Shown here piece by piece: positions 1,155-13,671 of a DNA stretch of 63,264 bases; the first letter of the stretch is position 1, and each line of letters starts with the position of its first letter. The position numbers were made by a program, and so were the translations under genes. Source of the DNA: Acidobacteriaceae bacterium. Its GTDB lineage: Bacteria > Acidobacteriota > Terriglobia > Terriglobales > Acidobacteriaceae. The stretch is taken from contig JASHOY010000219.1 of the NCBI GenBank assembly GCA_030038435.1, positions 1 through 63,264 on the forward strand, read 5' to 3'. Under the pieces are notes generated by a model, which saw only the letters and a program-made list of their open reading frames with translations, did no database searches and was not told the origin of the DNA.

Positions 1155-3323
1155 ATGCAAAACCGTTTTGTTAGGCTTGGTTCGCTGGCGGTTGCTCTAA
1201 CGCAGCCCACAATCGCATTCGTCTTTTTCCTGTCTGCCTCGGCAACTGTGCATGCGCAAGTTTGTATGAACATCAATCCCAGCGACCCCGCGGACGAAAC
1301 ATTCTCGCCGATGTATTGGGCGCCTGGGCAGAATTACACCGTCACCTTCACGGACCCGAATGGGGAGTTTTTTTCTGAGCCTTCCCATCAGACTTCCCTC
1401 TACGTTTTCGATCAGAGCGAATACGTACCGGGCGGGCCGGTCTACCAGGAGGATCCGTATGTTACGGTTTCCTCGCCGACCTACATTAGCCCAACAGAGA
1501 CTACGTTTAATGTTTCAGTCGCGGCCGGGGCGCCGGTTGAGGGCGATGGATTGAACTTCACCTGTTTCCAAAGTGGATTCTTCGCGGGCCCCGGATACAT
1601 TGAGATCACCCCGTGTGCCGTTCCTGTCACGCCCACGATCACCTCCATAGAGCCCGCCACCTGGACGGCCGGCGTGGCAACGGAGGTCACGATCACCGGA
1701 ACCGGTTTTATTACCGGGGACGGACCGAACTACTGTTTCCCGACCAGTCTGGCCATAGCTACTGGGTCGGGTTCTGTAAGTGTATTGAGCCAGGCGATCG
1801 TGAGCTCAACGCAAATCACCGCAACAGTTGAGCCGTATGTCACGGACCCCGCCGAGGCAGCCAGTGTTACGGCTTCCGATCCTCAATATACCAATCCAAC
1901 GACTTACCAGACAACGACAGCCACTGCCCAAATAGCCCCGACGACCTGTCCTATTCCACACGTATCGTCAGTGTCGCCAAACGTGTGGTTTGCCGGAAGC
2001 TCGTATAGGAATGTTACGTTTACCGGAACTAACTTCATCACTAAATCACAGGCTACCGCAACCTGCCCGGCCACAACGCTCTCGATCAATACGGGAGACG
2101 GCAGCGTCACAGTTTCCGGGGTCAGCGTGTCGAGCTCGACAAAGATTACCGCGACCGTGCGAGTGGCGTCAGACAGTAACACTGAAGCCGCGACGGCCGA
2201 TGCTTACGGCGATACCGGCCCGACCGCGGATGCGGATGTCCTCGGGGATCCAGTGATCACATGGGCCAGCGATCCGGATGGGACTAGCCCAACCATCAGC
2301 GGCCCGTACGCCACGGACCCGGACCCCAGCGCGGTCGTGGGTCAGCAGATCTATTTGACGACAGAGCCGGACGCGTCAATGCTGGCTGGCCTTCCGGTAC
2401 CCCTCACCTTTTCAGCGACCGCGCCAACCACCTGGACAGTGACGGGCGGAACGAACATCGGCGGATATACGCCAACCCCGACCTCCTTCGCAACCGGTAG
2501 CGTGACCGAGATGACGCTCGACACCAGTACCCTCACCTTCTACTCCGTTTATCCGGCGGCAAGCGTGAGCGTAGCTTACAGCTATTGTGTCTCGGGCGAG
2601 ACGACGTGTCCGGAGGGCACGGCAACGTTTGAGGTGACTTTCCCGGGCGACTCGGCGATGACGACCGATGCCTATAACGCTGTGCTGGTCGACATGATCG
2701 TGGGCCATCAGCCCTGCCTACCAACTGACCTCGACCCGTACTTGCAGTATGGCGTAATCACGGGCTATGATCCTGACGTCTGCCCCGACCAGGGCGGCGA
2801 AATAGGGGATCCGCCTGGTATCCAGTTCACGCCGCCGACGGCTTATTCCGGCGGGAGTTATTCCCTTGTCCAGGTCCTTCCGGCTGGAAATATAACAACT
2901 TATGCCAGCGGAACCAGCACCGGGGCCTATGTCACCGCGCCTGGCCTGGACGGTACGTACCCATACCCCTATGGCAGCGATGCGCCAGGCGTCGGTCTCG
3001 GTGCGAATTACTCGGAGGTCAGCAGAGACTTTGCGGCAACTATGTATCTGCTGTGGACCTCGGACGTCCCGTCCTCGATTCCGGTCCCAATCGGTTACCA
3101 AAAGTGGTGTTTCCAAACTACGACCGCGAACCCCGGCTATCCGACCGGCCAAAGTTGGACCACACCTGTTTCGCAATACGTTGGCACGGATGGCGGTTTC
3201 GTTCTATCGTCGACCCAGGCGACGAGCCAAACCACGCCGTATGGATATCCGACTTGGACCGTAGTGGCGTCGACGACGTGGTCGACGCCGGCTCCGACAA
3301 ATCCGGCAGGCAACTGTCCCTGA
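1155..3323 (+). CDS. Secreted protein with two IPT/TIG domains
   Basis: A 722-residue exported protein of unknown role. Residues 1 to about 34 form a signal peptide with a hydrophobic core and a VHA-Q cleavage region. Two IPT/TIG immunoglobulin-like repeats start near residues 157 and 268; both open with a PxIxSxxP-type strand and carry the TFTGTxF/TITGTGF signature. The rest is rich in Thr, Ser, Pro and Tyr, as in surface proteins. The C-terminus carries an SSIPVPIGY motif near residue 640 that recurs in the relic at 4505-4771. The start chosen is ATG 1155, because GGGAGG lies 6 nt upstream and the signal peptide begins exactly there; the frame stays open further upstream to 999 but encodes nothing export-like. 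The small secreted-protein gene at 3343 follows after 19 nt, so they are probably co-transcribed. Confidence 0.75.
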   Translation: MQNRFVRLGSLAVALTQPTIAFVFFLSASATVHAQVCMNINPSDPADETFSPMYWAPGQNYTVTFTDPNGEFFSEPSHQTSLYVFDQSEYVPGGPVYQEDPYVTVSSPTYISPTETTFNVSVAAGAPVEGDGLNFTCFQSGFFAGPGYIEITPCAVPVTPTITSIEPATWTAGVATEVTITGTGFITGDGPNYCFPTSLAIATGSGSVSVLSQAIVSSTQITATVEPYVTDPAEAASVTASDPQYTNPTTYQTTTATAQIAPTTCPIPHVSSVSPNVWFAGSSYRNVTFTGTNFITKSQATATCPATTLSINTGDGSVTVSGVSVSSSTKITATVRVASDSNTEAATADAYGDTGPTADADVLGDPVITWASDPDGTSPTISGPYATDPDPSAVVGQQIYLTTEPDASMLAGLPVPLTFSATAPTTWTVTGGTNIGGYTPTPTSFATGSVTEMTLDTSTLTFYSVYPAASVSVAYSYCVSGETTCPEGTATFEVTFPGDSAMTTDAYNAVLVDMIVGHQPCLPTDLDPYLQYGVITGYDPDVCPDQGGEIGDPPGIQFTPPTAYSGGSYSLVQVLPAGNITTYASGTSTGAYVTAPGLDGTYPYPYGSDAPGVGLGANYSEVSRDFAATMYLLWTSDVPSSIPVPIGYQKWCFQTTTANPGYPTGQSWTTPVSQYVGTDGGFVLSSTQATSQTTPYGYPTWTVVASTTWSTPAPTNPAGNCP

Positions 3324-3342
3324 AGAAGAAATGGAGGAGAGA

Positions 3343-3858
3343 ATGATGACAAATTTCGTGAGAAATCTTGCGTTCAAGCTTCTGGGGGCCGCTGTTCTTG
3401 CGGGCTTGCTGAATGCGCAGGCAGACCCACAGAATCAAAAGTTCAAACTCCAGATCCATGCGGTGAGGCCCGTGGTTTCGTCAGGTTCCGACGTCGATAT
3501 TGAAATCGACCTAACAAACACTTCAGACGGTCCCCTCACGTTCGAGTTCGGGCATCGCGGGAATGTAGCTACTGGTTACCGGTACGATGTGCGGAACGAC
3601 CAGGGCAAAATGGCCCCGAGGGTTGTACATCACGATCCGCTCGAGCCCAGCGAGCCGCCCGGAAGTTCAGGCGAGGGCCAAATCCAAGCTGGGCAGAGCA
3701 TTGGGGAGGCTTCCAGAATTAGCGATATCTTTCAGTTCAATCGTCCCGGGGCGTACACGATTCAGGTCTCGCGATCCGTGCCTTGGTCACCCACAATTTA
3801 CTCCAACAAGATTACGGTCACCATCTTGCCTAAATCGGATGGCGCTGAGCCGCAATGA
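3343..3858 (+). CDS. Small secreted Ig-fold protein, paralogue A
   Basis: About 171 residues, beginning with a signal peptide (hydrophobic stretch ending LLNAQ-A near residue 26). The mature part looks all-beta. It shares with the products at 4791 and 5324 the order VxxGSxVxxxIxLTN, a GYRYDVRN-like strand, a polar loop, SDIFQFNRPGxYTIQVSR and a final strand NKITVTI. The fold resembles an intracellular-proteinase-inhibitor or cohesin-like beta sandwich, but no enzyme motif is visible. ATG 3343 and ATG 3346 both sit behind GGAGGAGAG (3333-3341); ATG 3331 overlaps that Shine-Dalgarno and is unlikely. It lies directly downstream of the TIG protein, which suggests a two-component secreted system. 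Function unknown. Confidence 0.65.
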   Translation: MMTNFVRNLAFKLLGAAVLAGLLNAQADPQNQKFKLQIHAVRPVVSSGSDVDIEIDLTNTSDGPLTFEFGHRGNVATGYRYDVRNDQGKMAPRVVHHDPLEPSEPPGSSGEGQIQAGQSIGEASRISDIFQFNRPGAYTIQVSRSVPWSPTIYSNKITVTILPKSDGAEPQ

Positions 3859-3958
3859 CCGACTTTTCATTGAAATCGCTGCGGGAGGGGCCAGATCAGG
3901 CAATGAATGAGGTATCGCCTTCACTGCCTCTATTTCTGAAGCTGTTCGCGGCTTCATC

Positions 3959-3978
3959 GGGCGGGTGGGCGCCCGCCC
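3959..3978. repeat. REP-like palindrome
   Basis: Perfect 7-bp stem GGGCGGG/CCCGCCC (3959-3965 and 3972-3978) around a short loop. It marks the left edge of the block of hairpins that surrounds the RAYT relic. Confidence 0.55.
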
Positions 3979-3989
3979 TATCTGATCCA

Positions 3990-4092
3990 ATAGAAAAAGC
4001 ATCGATGTCATTAACTGATTACCGGGGCAATTGTTTTTCTGACCGATGAGCGTCAAAAAGAGACTCTAATGAGGACAATCCGCGCTATATCC
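3990..4092 (+). pseudogene. Scar: tail of paralogue-B copy and head of paralogue-C copy
   Basis: This stretch is about 90 % identical to 5242-5349. In the intact copy, that DNA holds the last codons of the 4791 gene (ending SIDVIN), the 50-nt spacer and the first codons of the 5324 gene. Here the same tail, spacer and restart (ATG 4071, reading MRTIRAIS) survive, but the frames before and after are lost. The right-hand homology stops at a REP-like palindrome. This is direct evidence that a second copy of the two-gene unit existed and was destroyed. Confidence 0.8.
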
Positions 4093-4095
4093 GGC

Positions 4096-4108
4096 GGGTG
4101 GCCCACCC
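4096..4108. repeat. REP-like palindrome
   Basis: GGGTGG-C-CCACCC, a perfect 6-bp inverted repeat. It sits exactly where homology to the 5324 gene stops, so it marks an insertion or recombination junction. Confidence 0.5.
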
Positions 4109-4140
4109 TAGTTTTTCAAAGCTTGTTTCACCACTATGCT

Positions 4141-4181
4141 GGGTGCCCCATCCTTGCGGCGTTTTTTGCCGCAAGGGTGGG
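4141..4181. repeat. REP-like hairpin, left mate
   Basis: GGGTGCCCCAT, then a CCTTGCGGC/GCCGCAAGG stem (4152-4160, 4168-4176) with a T-rich loop, then GGTGGGA. The same motif recurs in opposite orientation at 4411-4450. Paired, inverted hairpins of this kind are typical of REPIN-like elements mobilised by RAYT transposases. Confidence 0.6.
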
Positions 4182-4224
4182 ACTGGCCCCCACTTCCCCT
4201 GAATGAATCCGGCGCTCATCCTTC

Positions 4225-4365
4225 TCAATCATGTCTCACCGTATCGATCACGACTTCAGCCGAAACCCACGGCGACTCCCGTTTCCGCGCCGTCCATTCC
4301 GACTCGATCTCCCCGTCCCGCTGGAAGACTCCGCACCTTCGGTAACGAAGCAATCCTTTCGGCAT
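4225..4365 (-). pseudogene. REP-associated tyrosine transposase (RAYT) relic
   Basis: A 46-codon frame reading MPKGLLRYRRCG..., then GEIESEWTARKRES..., to a stop. The first segment looks like the start of acidobacterial RAYT (IS200-like Y1) proteins; the second looks like their extreme C-terminus. The catalytic middle, with the HxH pair and tyrosine, is missing, so this is an internal deletion derivative of a normal protein of roughly 150-200 residues. REP hairpins sit on both sides. The assignment rests on recalled family endings, not an alignment. Confidence 0.5.
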
Positions 4366-4410
4366 GGTGCCAAATTCTACACCGCGCCGGGCAATCGGGT
4401 TTGTGCGCAA

Positions 4411-4450
4411 TCCCACGCTTGCGGCAAAAGAGGCCGCAAGGGGCACCCAC
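4411..4450. repeat. REP-like hairpin, right mate
   Basis: Stem CTTGCGGC/GCCGCAAG (4418-4425, 4433-4440) followed by GGGCACCCAC, which is the reverse complement of the GGGTGCCCCAT side of 4141-4181. It lies on the other side of the RAYT relic. Confidence 0.55.
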
Positions 4451-4482
4451 GGTGATGATGGAACGGGCTGAGAAAAAGCATG

Positions 4483-4497
4483 GGCGGGCCACCCGCC
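4483..4497. repeat. REP-like palindrome
   Basis: GGCGGG-CCA-CCCGCC, immediately before homology to the TIG protein resumes at 4505; the right boundary of the inserted block. Confidence 0.5.
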
Positions 4498-4504
4498 AGC
4501 TGAT

Positions 4505-4771
4505 GCAGATTTCAGCGCAACGATGTATTTAATGTGGCAGCCAAACATGCCGTCCTCAACTCCAGTGCCGGCGGGCTACACGTCGTCTATACCGGTGCCC
4601 ATTGGCTATGTTCCATGGAATTGGTCCGGAGAGGCAGCGCAAGATTCTGGCGTGTGGTCGGTCTTACCAGACAGTGTGGTTAACTCGTCAAACCCGCCCC
4701 TCATTATGAGCGCGGCCTTTCCAACATGGAGCAGCGTAGTTACAATAACTGCGCCGCCGTCCTGCCATTAA
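4505..4771 (+). pseudogene. C-terminal relic of a second TIG-type secreted protein
   Basis: The frame reads ADFSATMYLMWQ..., then SSTPVPAGY and SSIPVPIGY, closely matching the C-terminus of the 1155-3323 product (RDFAATMYLLWT..., SSIPVPIGY) and ending in a comparable ITAPPSCH tail. The upstream TIG domains, signal peptide and start are missing; a REP block takes their place. ATG 4523 could in principle start an 82-residue product, but it would lack a signal peptide and begin in mid-domain. The gene at 4791 follows after 19 nt, exactly the spacing seen after the intact TIG gene. Confidence 0.75.
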
Positions 4772-4790
4772 AAAAACGAGAGAGGAACCT

Positions 4791-5273
4791 ATGAAACGCC
4801 GGAACGTTTTTCTTACCATCATGCAGACATTTTTGCTGGCGATATTCGCGCATGCCCAGGCCCGCCAGGTAACGATCACAATCAGCACTTCTCAAACAGA
4901 GGTAAAGGCAGGCGTTCCCGTCAATTTAGAAATTGTCTTGGCGAATCTAAGCCAACAAGACATCCATATTTTCAGAGCTCCCGGGCACGAGCACGCGGAA
5001 CTATTCTATTCCATATCAGTCTGTCGCGGTGACGGTAGTGCGGCGCCTATGACAACGTATGATGATGCTATAAACAATAGAGGAGCCCGGCCTATCAGTA
5101 AGATAATGACGACGATCAAACCAGGGGAAAAGCTGAAAGAATACGCCACCATCAGTGACATATTTGACATGACGGTGGCTGGGAAATATGAAATTGTAGT
5201 GAAGCGGCCAGATCCCTTAGATCCAAGAGTGCTTATCAGATCAAACAGAATAAGCATCGATGTCATTAACTGA
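4791..5273 (+). CDS. Small secreted Ig-fold protein, paralogue B
   Basis: 160 residues with a signal peptide ending near AHAQA (residues 19-23). The mature domain has the same strand order as the 3343 and 5324 products: VKAGVPVNLEIVLAN, a FYSISV strand, a KPGEKL turn, ISDIFDMTVAGKYEIVVKR and a last strand RISIDVIN. No catalytic motif is seen. AGAGAGGA lies just upstream of ATG 4791. It directly follows the TIG relic, as the 3343 gene follows the intact TIG gene, and is 50 nt before its paralogue at 5324. Function unknown; a partner or binding module for a cell-surface protein is an inference from context. Confidence 0.65.
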   Translation: MKRRNVFLTIMQTFLLAIFAHAQARQVTITISTSQTEVKAGVPVNLEIVLANLSQQDIHIFRAPGHEHAELFYSISVCRGDGSAAPMTTYDDAINNRGARPISKIMTTIKPGEKLKEYATISDIFDMTVAGKYEIVVKRPDPLDPRVLIRSNRISIDVIN

Positions 5274-5323
5274 TTACCGGGGCAATTGTTTTTCTGACCG
5301 ATGAGTGTCAAAAAGAGAATCTA

Positions 5324-5881
5324 ATGAAGACAATCCGCGCTATATCCGCCATGATGGCCTTCTGCGTCGCTTTAACTGGAGTCGCGGTTTCTCAACAAGG
5401 CGAAGAGACGACATTACCTTTCACAATTGAAATCACTGACAATTTGGAAGCGGGCCACTCCAATCAGTGGGATTTTGCGAACAGTGGAGAAACCACCGTA
5501 AAGGCCGGTTCTATGGTGGTGGTGAGAGTCCGAAAGACCAGTCGCTCCGATCACGAGATCGCAAGAGTGGCGGCAAATGGATCGCCATATGGCTACGAAT
5601 ACGAGGTACATAATAGCAACGGCCAGTTACTTGAGCGGAAGACGCTTAAAAATTCGCGCGGCTGGATTTTAGACGGCGGCCCAGGGATTGTGAGGGGATC
5701 GAAAGACATGGTCCTCCAACCTGGAGAAACCCAGACAGCCACAGCGATCATTAGCGATTGGTTTGATCTGTCGCAGCCGGGAACGTACAGCATCCAGCTC
5801 TTGCAACACGTCTCAAGTCTCCCTCAATCTCCCGTCGTTAAATCGAACACAATTGAAATCCGAGTCGTGTCTGCCGACTGA
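5324..5881 (+). CDS. Small secreted Ig-fold protein, paralogue C
   Basis: 185 residues; signal peptide residues 1 to about 23 (ending VAVSQ-Q). It is longer than its neighbours, with an extra N-terminal strand (FTIEITDN) and a glycine-rich loop. It keeps the family core: VKAGSMVVVRV, YGYEYEVHNSNG, LQPGETQTAT, ISDWFDLSQPGTYSIQL and the last strand NTIEIRVV. The start ATG 5324 follows AAAGAGAA, a weak Shine-Dalgarno. It is the third member of the array; its 5' end is duplicated in the scar at 3990-4092. No enzymatic function can be proposed. Confidence 0.65.
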   Translation: MKTIRAISAMMAFCVALTGVAVSQQGEETTLPFTIEITDNLEAGHSNQWDFANSGETTVKAGSMVVVRVRKTSRSDHEIARVAANGSPYGYEYEVHNSNGQLLERKTLKNSRGWILDGGPGIVRGSKDMVLQPGETQTATAIISDWFDLSQPGTYSIQLLQHVSSLPQSPVVKSNTIEIRVVSAD

Positions 5882-7429: not shown

Positions 7430-9022
7430 ATGATTTGGCACATTTTCAAAAAAGACTTCAGGCTGCTCTGGCCCTTCGCCCTCGCGATCGCCATCCTGCC
7501 TTTTGCCATCGTTGCCGTTCACCTCAAGATGGACCACTTCTTCGCAGAGAACGATACCCTCGAGGCTTTGCTCATGCTGTTGGAACTGATGCTCTACTTC
7601 GGTGCCGCCTCGCTTACCGCAGTGGCCGTCCATCATGACAGCCTGGCTGATGTGCGCCAGGACTGGCTCGCGCGTCCCATCCGCCGCCGCGATCTCCTCG
7701 CCGCCAAGCTGCTCTTCGTTTTGCTCGCCGCTCAATTGCCGCTGCTTCTCGCCAATCTGGCCTGCGGACTCATCGACCGCTTTGCTTTTTTCTCAACGCT
7801 CTCTGCCTCAATCACTGAAGACCTTTATTTTTTCCTCGGTTTTATGCTGCCCGTTTTTGCGTTTGTCTCGCTCACCAGGAACCTCACCGAAGCGCTGGGC
7901 GGCGCCTTCGCCCTGTTTATCGGAGTCATGGGCCTTGAAATGCTGCTCGCGGCCACGAACGGCGGCAGCGTCCTCGGCCCGACGGCGGGAACCGGCGTCG
8001 CATGGATTCCGCAGACAGAGCGCCTGCTCATCTATCTCCTGGCCGCGAGCGCGATTCTCGGCTCGCAGTATTTTCGCCGCGCTACGCGCGTATCGCGTTA
8101 CGTTCTCGCCGGCGCGATCGTGCTGTGTGCCCTCACGCAAGTTGCTCCGTGGCGCTATGCCTTCGGTTTCGAGAAAGCGCTCTCCGCCGCGCCGGCAGCA
8201 GACCCGTCAATTCATTTCGATCCCGCTCTCGGACGGTATCACTCGCCAGTTTCCGCTGAAACGCAATCGAGCGCCACGCAGCTTGATACGCAAAACTTGC
8301 GCGTCCCGCAAAAGGGCGCAGAGATTTATTTTCCGGTGGAAGTAAGTGGCGTTGACCGCGGATCGATTCTCAAAATCGACAGCGCCTCGGTGCATCTGCT
8401 CGGCGCCCACGGCAAGCATGAGTCGGTCATCAATATTGCCGGCGATCCGGGAGGCTTTGAGGTCCCCAACGATGGCGCGGCCGATTCCGCGCCGGTCACT
8501 CATTTCGAACCGGTGCAGATACGCAGCAGCATTTACAACCGGATTAAAAACACCCCGGTGACCCTGCAAATCGATTACTCGGAGACCGCGTTGCGGCTTG
8601 CCTCTACCGCTTCGCTTCCCGCAATCGGCGCAAACCAGCGCGTCCCTGGCGTCGGCTGGTGCCAATCCCAGTTCAACGACGACAAAACCGCCGTCGAGGT
8701 GCGCTGTCTGGCAGCCGGTCATCTGCCCCAATGCAGCACCATTTTGCTGGAAAATCCCGCAACCAGGGCGCAGAACCCGGCCATTCACGGGTGTCTCGAC
8801 GACTACTCGCCTTATTTCGGCCGTTACAAGCCGCCCGACCTGATCACGCGCGAAGGCGCGAACCTCTATTTCCGCGATACCGCCGGCTTGCTTCACTACC
8901 CCGTCGACGCTGCGCAGATTGCCCGCTCTCGTGTGCTGTTGAAAAGCTACGGCGTTGCCGCCCACTTCAGTCAGCAACTGACCATCCCCGCAATCCGTCT
9001 CGTCGACTGGTCCGCGCCCTGA
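7430..9022 (+). CDS. ABC transporter permease with large C-terminal domain
   Basis: 530 residues. The first 250 or so contain about six membrane helices (around residues 12-30, 43-65, 95-120, 130-150, 158-178, 200-240). A soluble, beta-rich region of about 280 residues follows, probably extracytoplasmic. ATG 7430 with AGGAG at 7419-7423 is the right start; the same frame is open from 6992 inside the ATPase gene, but that part is a shadow. It pairs with the upstream ATPase and GntR regulator. The large soluble domain is unusual for an ABC-2 permease and may sense or bind the substrate. The transported compound cannot be named. Confidence 0.75.
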   Translation: MIWHIFKKDFRLLWPFALAIAILPFAIVAVHLKMDHFFAENDTLEALLMLLELMLYFGAASLTAVAVHHDSLADVRQDWLARPIRRRDLLAAKLLFVLLAAQLPLLLANLACGLIDRFAFFSTLSASITEDLYFFLGFMLPVFAFVSLTRNLTEALGGAFALFIGVMGLEMLLAATNGGSVLGPTAGTGVAWIPQTERLLIYLLAASAILGSQYFRRATRVSRYVLAGAIVLCALTQVAPWRYAFGFEKALSAAPAADPSIHFDPALGRYHSPVSAETQSSATQLDTQNLRVPQKGAEIYFPVEVSGVDRGSILKIDSASVHLLGAHGKHESVINIAGDPGGFEVPNDGAADSAPVTHFEPVQIRSSIYNRIKNTPVTLQIDYSETALRLASTASLPAIGANQRVPGVGWCQSQFNDDKTAVEVRCLAAGHLPQCSTILLENPATRAQNPAIHGCLDDYSPYFGRYKPPDLITREGANLYFRDTAGLLHYPVDAAQIARSRVLLKSYGVAAHFSQQLTIPAIRLVDWSAP

Positions 9023-9077: not shown

Positions 9078-10169
9078 ATGACGACGTATAAGATCGCTTT
9101 GATCCCGGGCGACGGTATCGGCAAAGAAGTCATCCCCGCCGGGCGCCAGGTTCTCGAATCCCTGAGCGCGGCGGACCCCGAGATCAGCTTCAGCTTCGAA
9201 TCTTTCCCCTGGGGCGGAGATTATTACCGCGCCCACGGTGCGATGATGCCTGCCGACGGGCTCGAAGCTCTGCGCGGCAAAGATGCCATCCTCTTCGGCT
9301 CCGCCGGCGACCCCGACATTCCCGACCACATCACCCTCTGGGGACTGCGTCTCAAAATCTGTCAGGGCCTCGACCAGTACGCCAATGTCCGCCCCACGCG
9401 CATCCTCCCCGGCATTGACGCGCCACTCAAGCGTTGCCGCCCCGAAGATCTCAACTGGGTCATCGTCCGCGAGAACAGTGAAGGCGAATACTCCGGCGCC
9501 GGCGGCCGCGTCCACCAGGGCCTGCCCATGGAAGCCGCCACGGATCTTTCCATGATGACCCGCGCCGGAGTCGAGCGCATCCAGCGCTACGCCTTTGGCC
9601 TCGCCCAGTCACGTCCGCGCAAACACCTAACCGTCGTCACCAAGAGCAACGCACAGCGCCACGCCATGGTCATGTGGGATGAAGTCGCGCGCGAAGTTGC
9701 TCAGGAATTCCCTGAGGTCACCTGGGATAAAGAAATGGTCGACGCCGCCACCGCGCGCATGGTCAACCACCCCGCCACGCTCGACACTATCGTTGCCACC
9801 AACCTCCACGCCGACATTCTCAGCGATCTTGCCGCCGCCCTTGCCGGCTCCCTCGGCATCGGACCCACTGCTAACATCAATCCCGAGCGCGCCACGCCGT
9901 CCATGTTCGAGCCCATCCACGGCTCCGCCTTTGACATCATGGGTAAGGGCATCGCCAACCCCATCGGCACCTTCTGGACGGCCGTGATGCTGCTCGAACA
10001 TCTCGGCGAAATCGAAGCCGCCAGGCGGGTGATGGCCGCCATCGAACGCGTCACCGCCAATCCCGCGCTGCACACGCGCGACCTCGGCGGCACCGCAACC
10101 ACGGCGCAGGTCACTGCCGCCGTATGCGCGCAAGTCGCTTCCACTCGCAGTTGTCTAACGCCTGCCTGA
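9078..10169 (+). CDS. Tartrate dehydrogenase/decarboxylase-type beta-decarboxylating dehydrogenase
   Basis: 363 residues of the isocitrate/isopropylmalate dehydrogenase superfamily. It opens with YKIALIPGDGIGKEVIP. Substrate arginines fall in the WGLRLKICQGLDQYANVRP segment; VRENSEGEYSGAGGR near 135, KSNAQRHAM, and the metal/NAD segment LHADILSDLAAALAGSLGIGPTANINP near 245 follow, then EPIHGSAFDIMGKGIANPIG. The combination of VRENSEGEYSG and GLDQYANVRP is typical of tartrate dehydrogenase/D-malate dehydrogenase (TtuC/DmlA), which oxidise tartrate or D-malate with NAD and Mn. GAGGAG precedes ATG 9078. It stands alone here, but a D-tartrate dehydratase and a dicarboxylate carrier lie at 44558-47045. 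L/meso-tartrate versus D-malate preference is not decidable from sequence alone. Confidence 0.85.
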   Translation: MTTYKIALIPGDGIGKEVIPAGRQVLESLSAADPEISFSFESFPWGGDYYRAHGAMMPADGLEALRGKDAILFGSAGDPDIPDHITLWGLRLKICQGLDQYANVRPTRILPGIDAPLKRCRPEDLNWVIVRENSEGEYSGAGGRVHQGLPMEAATDLSMMTRAGVERIQRYAFGLAQSRPRKHLTVVTKSNAQRHAMVMWDEVAREVAQEFPEVTWDKEMVDAATARMVNHPATLDTIVATNLHADILSDLAAALAGSLGIGPTANINPERATPSMFEPIHGSAFDIMGKGIANPIGTFWTAVMLLEHLGEIEAARRVMAAIERVTANPALHTRDLGGTATTAQVTAAVCAQVASTRSCLTPA

Positions 10170-10209
10170 TTCCTGCCCATCGGCGCTTAATGGACGCCTC
10201 GCCGGAGGC

Positions 10210-10240
10210 CTATGCGCGCAAACCGGCCTGCGCGCAATAG
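10210..10240 (+). terminator. Possible terminator hairpin after the dehydrogenase
   Basis: CTAT-GCGCGC, a 10-nt loop, then GCGCGC-A-ATAG, followed by ACTTGTTTCT. A strong, slightly bulged stem in the gap between two same-strand genes. Confidence 0.35.
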
Positions 10241-10308
10241 ACTTGTTTCTGGAATTTCTTTCCCCATAGAATTCCACCGTTCGCGCTAACCGCCCCGGAG
10301 GACTCCGC

Positions 10309-13671
<3,363 letters not shown>

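What the first reader, a model, noticed from the sequence alone, without database searches (positions are those of the whole stretch)
1155..5881. Tandemly duplicated, partly erased locus of TIG and Ig-like secreted proteins
Seen in sequence: 3990-4092 is about 90 % identical to 5242-5349 and preserves a stop, a spacer and a start from two flanking genes. 4505-4771 is a C-terminal copy of the 1155-3323 protein, and the small protein genes at 3343 and 4791 both follow a TIG C-terminus by 19 nt. So the unit [TIG protein - small Ig protein(s)] was duplicated and one copy was cut down around a REP block. The three small proteins share a strand pattern that fits no enzyme family I know. The repeated pairing of one large TIG protein with small Ig-like partners suggests a secreted complex or an adhesion/inhibitor system not yet described.
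Basis: partly seen in the sequence, partly recalled or inferred. Interest (0 to 1): 0.6.

Follow-up and report, generated by a model that had tools for sequence, protein, structure and literature searches.

The report
Swappable secreted-protein pair with Ig partner
In soil Acidobacteriaceae, a large secreted protein with an exchangeable tail is almost always encoded directly before a small immunoglobulin-like secreted partner, and tail and partner move together as a cassette, much as toxin tails and their antidote genes do, but in protein families that have no name or known function.

Summary
The scar (3979-4093 vs 5234-5348) is 115 nt at 94% and occurs nowhere else in the genome. It preserves the end of gene B, the spacer and the start of gene C. 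The three small proteins are true paralogues, and 4505-4771 is an orphan C-terminal tail of a second T protein. The 'REP block' is a decayed RAYT/REPIN element.

The simple reading (one recent duplication of the whole unit) is wrong. T1-A and T2-B are old, divergent cassettes (about 30% identical). Only the B-C junction was copied recently.

The pairing is much stronger than proposed. 20 of 21 T C-terminal domains found in Acidobacteriaceae are followed on the same strand by a small Ig-like gene. T tail and partner co-diverge. In two Terriglobus species with 84-89% identical flanking DNA, the T C-terminus and partner are replaced as one block, and one version matches another genus. Several genomes carry orphan tail-partner modules, half of them broken near a MYLMW motif. 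This is the architecture of polymorphic toxin/immunity cassettes.

Function is not shown. The tail has no toxin signature. The partner resembles protease propeptide/inhibitor domains. Best guess: a partner that caps its cognate tail (antagonism or adhesion).

The parts
1155..3323 (+). T1: 722-aa secreted TIG/Ig protein (Sec-type signal, TIG domains, C-terminal 'T-ct' domain)
   Evidence: Pfam PF01833 E 3e-8, two stretches; signal peptide read from sequence; no other known family
2802..3317 (+). T-ct domain of T1 (PGLDGTYPYP...DxP...MYLLW...SIPVPIG..W...YPTW), the part that is linked to the small partner
   Evidence: profile match E 1e-61, alignment A6
3343..3858 (+). A: small secreted Ig-like partner of T1, 19 nt after the T1 stop
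3960..3978 (+). REP palindrome (GGCGGGTGGGCGCCCGCCC) abutting the left edge of the scar
3979..4018 (+). scar, part 1: dead 3' end of a copy of B (one in-frame stop, then the B stop codon)
   Evidence: aligned to 5234-5273 with four substitutions
4019..4068 (+). scar, part 2: B-C spacer, two substitutions
4069..4093 (+). scar, part 3: first codons of a copy of C (MRTIRAIS), cut by a REPIN
4093..4185 (+). REPIN 1 of a genome-wide family
4273..4410 (-). remnant of the 3' part of a RAYT (Y1 transposase) gene
   Evidence: 51% identity over 47 aa to the RAYT at G000:C276, E 5e-6 in a local tblastn; three RAYT genes flanked by the same REPINs in this genome
4408..4497 (-). REPIN 2, inverted relative to REPIN 1
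4505..4771 (+). T2-ct: orphan C-terminal tail of a second T protein; homology begins just before MYLMW
4791..5273 (+). B: small secreted Ig-like partner of T2-ct, 19 nt after its stop; AlphaFold2 pLDDT 88
5234..5348 (+). source (intact) copy of the scar: end of B, spacer, start of C
5324..5881 (+). C: third small secreted Ig-like paralogue

Best explanation
The locus holds two cassettes of a two-gene secreted module of Acidobacteriaceae: [T1-A] and the remains of a second, [T2 tail-B-C]. Shown by sequence: the C-terminal domain of T and the small Ig-like gene directly downstream form one heritable unit. That unit is exchanged as a block behind a conserved T N-terminus, occurs in tandem arrays with orphan, 5'-truncated T tails, and the partner gene sometimes outlives T. 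Inferred: both proteins are exported by Sec, and the small protein folds as an Ig-like sandwich resembling a protease propeptide/inhibitor and binds its cognate T tail, most likely capping or neutralising it in the periplasm or at the surface (immunity-like), so that swapping tail plus partner changes specificity without self-harm. In this window a RAYT/REPIN element and deletions removed most of the second T and of a copied B-C segment, leaving T1-A intact and B and C as open frames without a full-length T.
For: Linkage: 17 of 18 T-ct places in 300 family genomes, plus 3 of 3 further ones (G642 twice, G703), are followed on the same strand by a small gene, usually within -55 to +41 nt. Only 52 of the 300 genomes have any small gene, so chance adjacency is negligible. 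Co-inheritance: identities of T tail and small protein over 20 pairs correlate (Mantel r 0.34, p 1e-4); nearest neighbours agree in 8 of 20 against 1.06 expected (p 1e-4). In-situ swap: Terriglobus albidus (L111) and a second Terriglobus (L113) share 84% identical DNA up to about T codon 355 and 89% identical DNA again beyond the cassette, while the T C-terminus drops to about 40% and the small genes barely align. The T. albidus C-terminus (60-84%) and its partner (55%) instead match G642 of another genus, whose T N-terminus is only about 30% alike. Arrays and orphans: G035, G205, G642 and the window. Six of 12 truncated copies break within 14 residues at MYLMW (scan p 0.0017, post hoc). Remnants of a T tail sit before 'solo' small genes in G109 and, weakly, G048. 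Partner fold: nearest solved relative by profile (E 4e-9) and by fold (Z 11.4, 3.0 A over 114 residues) is the propeptide of the aspzincin AsaP1; the BsuPI-type inhibitor 3isy follows (Z 9.7). Cassettes are under purifying selection (G148/G642a: small dN 0.29, dS 0.99). The same architecture (orphan tails starting at a motif, each with its small gene; tail swaps) is described for CDI/Rhs toxins (PMC3150448), and partner genes that outlive displaced effectors for T6SS (PMC5361080).
Against: No toxin, protease, nuclease or secretion-machinery domain was found in T. T tails stay recognisably one family with aromatic and Pro/Gly conservation rather than unrelated toxin folds. The small domain also occurs alone, in triple-domain proteins, and fused to the C-terminus of S9 peptidases, so it may be a generic extracellular domain. 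Binding between T and the small protein was not tested. The T model was poor (pLDDT 53). The clear block exchange rests on one pair of species.
Confidence: 0.45

Rival explanations
1. Variable-tip adhesin or matrix protein with an accessory subunit: T is a surface or matrix TIG/Ig protein whose C-terminal domain docks the small Ig protein; tail and subunit are swapped to escape phage or to change binding specificity. No toxicity is involved.
For: TIG/Ig domains in T and in adjacent upstream genes, some of which also resemble tail fibres, in Terriglobus and G035. The partner's fold is also close to the biofilm protein RbmA (Z 9.9). No catalytic signature in the tail. Tails remain one family.
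Against: Persistence of the partner after loss of T is better explained by a protective role; a docking subunit would be useless alone. No anchor or pilus/secretin partner was seen.
Confidence: 0.3
2. Ordinary secreted protein family with a generic Ig-like neighbour: two genes kept together by co-transcription, with arrays made by neutral tandem duplication and decay, and no functional specificity between tail and partner.
For: The small domain is widespread in the phylum and in other contexts. REPIN/RAYT activity and deletions explain the decay. Rare, patchy distribution (3 of 80 species in the genus).
Against: Nearly obligate adjacency across at least 8 genera, co-divergence of tail and partner, block replacement between conserved flanks, and purifying selection.
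Confidence: 0.17
3. Protease/inhibitor pair: the small protein is a stand-alone propeptide-like inhibitor and T a target or carrier of a protease.
For: Nearest solved relatives are the AsaP1 propeptide and BsuPI; the domain is fused to DPP5-like S9 peptidases in genus g34.
Against: T has no peptidase domain; Ig-like folds match many unrelated proteins; only the fold, not inhibition residues, was compared.
Confidence: 0.08

Closest known systems
CdiA-CT/CdiI and Rhs-CT/RhsI orphan modules (polymorphic toxin systems; PMC3150448, PMC3482391)
   Same: Large exported protein with conserved N-terminus and exchangeable C-terminus; small partner gene directly downstream; downstream arrays of 5'-truncated tail + partner; breaks cluster at a motif (VENN there, MYLMW here); block exchange of tail + partner.
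   Different: No toxin domain, no T5SS/T6SS/T7SS or RHS features in T; tails are one recognisable family; the partner is itself Sec-exported and Ig-like; the boundary of the swap seen in Terriglobus lies far upstream of the motif (about codon 355).
T6SS effector displacement and immunity-gene arrays of Vibrio cholerae (PMC5361080)
   Same: Partner (immunity) genes are retained while the effector gene is lost or reduced to a 3' remnant; long arrays.
   Different: No T6SS genes linked here; partner is exported by Sec.
AsaP1 aspzincin propeptide (PDB 2x3a) and BsuPI-type inhibitor (PDB 3isy)
   Same: Same Ig-like fold as the small proteins; AsaP1 propeptide also matches by sequence profile (E 4e-9).
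   Different: AsaP1 propeptide is part of a protease precursor; the small proteins are separate genes next to non-protease T proteins. Inhibitory contacts not compared.
RAYT/REPIN elements
   Same: The block at 4093-4497 has inverted REPINs and a RAYT remnant like three intact RAYT loci in this genome.
   Different: Decayed; it only disrupted the locus and is not part of the pair.

Membership tests
[quoted passage not shown]
   Terriglobus pair: 74-92% to residue 350, then about 40%; flanking DNA 84-89%
Polymorphic toxin system | Small partner gene immediately downstream that co-varies with the C-terminus | tested here: met
   20 of 21 adjacent; Mantel p 1e-4, nearest-neighbour agreement p 1e-4
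Polymorphic toxin system | Stand-alone/orphan C-terminal cassettes with partner genes | tested here: met
   window, G035, G093, G205, G247, G642
Polymorphic toxin system | C-terminal domain is a toxin (known toxin fold or toxicity) | tested here: inconclusive
   no Pfam, NCBIfam, PHROGs or PADLOC toxin match for window T and no PDB profile match for the tail; toxicity not testable here
Polymorphic toxin system | Partner neutralises the C-terminal domain | not testable with these tools
   needs binding and co-expression assays
Polymorphic toxin system | Recognised N-terminal trafficking domain or repeats (TPS, PAAR, WXG/LXG, RHS, or at least a Sec signal) | tested here: inconclusive
   plain Sec-type signal peptide only, read by eye; no other leader found
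AsaP1-type aspzincin propeptide | Homologous Ig-like prodomain | tested here: met
   profile E 4e-9, Z 11.4
AsaP1-type aspzincin propeptide | Followed in the same chain by an M35 aspzincin catalytic domain | tested here: not met
   small proteins end after the Ig-like domain; no peptidase in T
BsuPI / chagasin (I42) inhibitors | Pfam match above the gathering score | tested here: not met
   A: Inhibitor_I42 17.7 bits vs 27.2 cut-off; G211 triple protein: BsuPI 21.5 vs 22.9
RAYT/REPIN element | Y1 transposase gene flanked by REPINs of the same family | tested here: met
   remnant in window; same REPINs flank RAYT genes at C88, C150, C276

The most novel reading that the evidence does not exclude
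A previously undescribed polymorphic antagonism or kin-recognition system of Acidobacteriaceae, in which a Sec-exported TIG/Ig protein carries an exchangeable C-terminal effector domain and the cognate immunity protein is itself an exported Ig-fold protein of protease-propeptide type, with orphan tail-partner cassettes as a reservoir.
Probability: 0.3. Interest if true: 0.72.

Novelty: new variant of a known kind. Interest (0 to 1): 0.52.

Why it matters
Acidobacteriaceae are abundant in soil, yet little is known of how they compete with or recognise each other (general knowledge). A cassette-swapping exported pair with no named domain gives a concrete, testable candidate, and would extend the polymorphic-cassette principle to exported Ig-fold partners. 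If the partner only docks to a variable surface tip, it is still a new exchangeable surface system.

Tried and rejected
One recent duplication of [TIG-small] as a unit: rejected, because T1/T2 tails and A/B are only about 30% identical while the scar is 94%. Scar as a generic repeat: rejected. dN/dS of A, B, C: synonymous sites saturated. T structure: pLDDT 53, not used for fold search. Viral contigs: no relative of B. Toxin, defence or phage family for T or the small proteins: none. Solved structures for the T tail: none. T-ct outside the family: none among 396 genomes drawn from the phylum. The first pairing script used a wrong frame for the G128 partner and the next had an indexing slip in its nearest-neighbour printout; both were corrected. 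Papers on this gene pair: none found; the primary paper on the AsaP1 propeptide was not found in the library.

Full report
Observation. The direct repeat is real: 3979-4093 and 5234-5348, 115 nt, 94%, E 2e-46. It covers the last 40 nt of B, the B-C spacer and the first 25 nt of C. In the left copy the B end has an in-frame stop. A search of the whole genome (6.4 Mb in 512 contigs) with this stretch finds only these two copies of the scar, but about 20 places for the neighbouring REP sequence. So the scar is a copy of this locus and not a scattered repeat. The left copy is bounded on both sides by REP sequence (3960-3978 and 4093 onward).

The REP block. 4093-4185 and 4408-4497 are inverted REPINs of a family that flanks three Y1-transposase (RAYT) genes elsewhere in this genome. 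Between them, on the minus strand at 4273-4410, 47 residues are 51% identical to the C-terminal part of one of these RAYT proteins (local E 5e-6). The block is therefore a decayed RAYT/REPIN element. Insertion and deletion around it are the simplest account of the missing pieces; this is inference.

The proteins. T (1155-3323) has a Sec-type signal, TIG domains and an unnamed C-terminal domain of about 160 residues, here called T-ct (invariant Q, D, P, Y, W positions). A, B and C are small exported paralogues. 4505-4771 is the T-ct tail of a second T, about 31% identical in the tail to T1. A and B are 27.5% identical. These are old paralogues; only the B-C junction was copied recently.

Pairing. 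A T-ct profile matched 18 places in 12 of 300 genomes of the family. A profile of the small family matched about 88 places in 52 of 300 genomes drawn in the same way. Comparing the coordinates, 17 of the 18 T-ct places are followed directly by a small gene on the same strand. The exception, in G073, is interrupted by a stop and has no small gene in the 680 nt left on the contig. Three more places (G642 twice, G703) are paired too, giving 20 of 21. Gaps are -55 to +41 nt except 179 nt before a truncated partner. T-ct was found only in this family among 396 genomes of the phylum, whereas weak small-family matches reach other families. One carrier is Terriglobus albidus DSM 26559, so the family is Acidobacteriaceae. 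Distribution is patchy: 3 of 80 species of the window's genus, 2 of 19 Terriglobus, 2 of 62 in genus g34.

Arrays and orphans. G035 has four pairs in tandem: T (866 aa), small, orphan tail, small, T (at least 399 aa), small, a T with an internal deletion, small. G205 and G642 have several pairs as well. Orphan tails in the window, G035 (two), G093, G205 and G247 all begin within 14 residues at the motif MYLMW; 6 of 12 truncated copies do so, scan p 0.0017. This test was made after the pattern was seen and the offsets were read by eye, so it is suggestive only. Some solo small genes keep a T-tail remnant upstream (G109, E 1.5e-5; G048, weak): the partner outlives T.

Exchange. The two Terriglobus loci share 84% identical DNA over 3.0 kb up to T codon about 355, and 89% identical DNA again downstream; between these, T drops to about 40% and the small proteins barely align. 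The Terriglobus albidus T C-terminus (60-84% in 50-residue windows) and its small protein (55%) match G642 of another genus, whose T N-terminus is about 30% alike. So tail and partner were replaced as one block. Across 20 pairs, tail and partner identities correlate (Mantel r 0.34, p 1e-4) and nearest neighbours agree in 8 of 20 (1.06 expected, p 1e-4). The T. albidus/G642 cassettes are under purifying selection (small: dN 0.29, dS 0.99).

Partner fold. AlphaFold2 with 33 relatives gives pLDDT 88 for B. The nearest solved relative by profile (E 4e-9) and by fold (Z 11.4, 3.0 A, 114 residues, 22% identity) is the propeptide part (residues 23-153) of the aspzincin protease AsaP1; next are RbmA (Z 9.9) and the BsuPI inhibitor 3isy (Z 9.7). 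Pfam inhibitor families stay below their cut-offs. The domain also occurs fused to DPP5-like S9 peptidases. That AsaP1's prodomain inhibits its protease is from general knowledge; the paper was not found in the library.

Mechanism. The architecture is that of polymorphic toxin/immunity systems: a conserved N-terminus with swapped C-termini, a cognate downstream partner, and orphan tail-partner modules starting at a motif (PMC3150448, PMC3482391), with partner genes retained after loss of the effector (PMC5361080). I therefore favour a partner that caps or neutralises its cognate tail. Toxicity and binding are not shown, the tail has no toxin signature, and an adhesin with a docking subunit explains most data too. 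Membership in polymorphic toxin systems is not claimed.

Verdict. A real, unusually well-linked exported gene pair with cassette exchange, in families without names; function open.

Noticed in passing
window 4093-4497: Decayed RAYT/REPIN element: inverted REPINs around a RAYT C-terminal remnant; intact RAYT genes flanked by the same REPINs lie at C88, C150 and C276 of this genome.
   Followed up: yes
L111 (Terriglobus albidus) 9663-12917, L023 8000-12000, L135 1239-2762: Upstream of T in Terriglobus, G035 and G642 lie further exported TIG proteins, and in the first two also proteins matching PHROG tail-fibre families; a helical protein is a separate gene overlapping T in Terriglobus and appears fused to the N-terminus of T in G035 and G642.
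   Followed up: partly
L113 (reverse-complement coordinates 7638-7895 and about 11808 onward): In the second Terriglobus, a 258-nt stretch just after the small gene is duplicated around a roughly 3.7-kb insertion (regulator, glycosyltransferase-like genes), a second example of a short copied flank beside this module.
   Followed up: no
L118 3058-6048, L126 5005-7242: The small Ig-like domain is fused to the C-terminus of DPP5-like S9 peptidases or their propeller-only relatives in several species of genus g34.
   Followed up: partly
G000:C327:22637-23116 (L035 7635-8138): A fourth small Ig-like paralogue in the window's genome, without a T protein.
   Followed up: no
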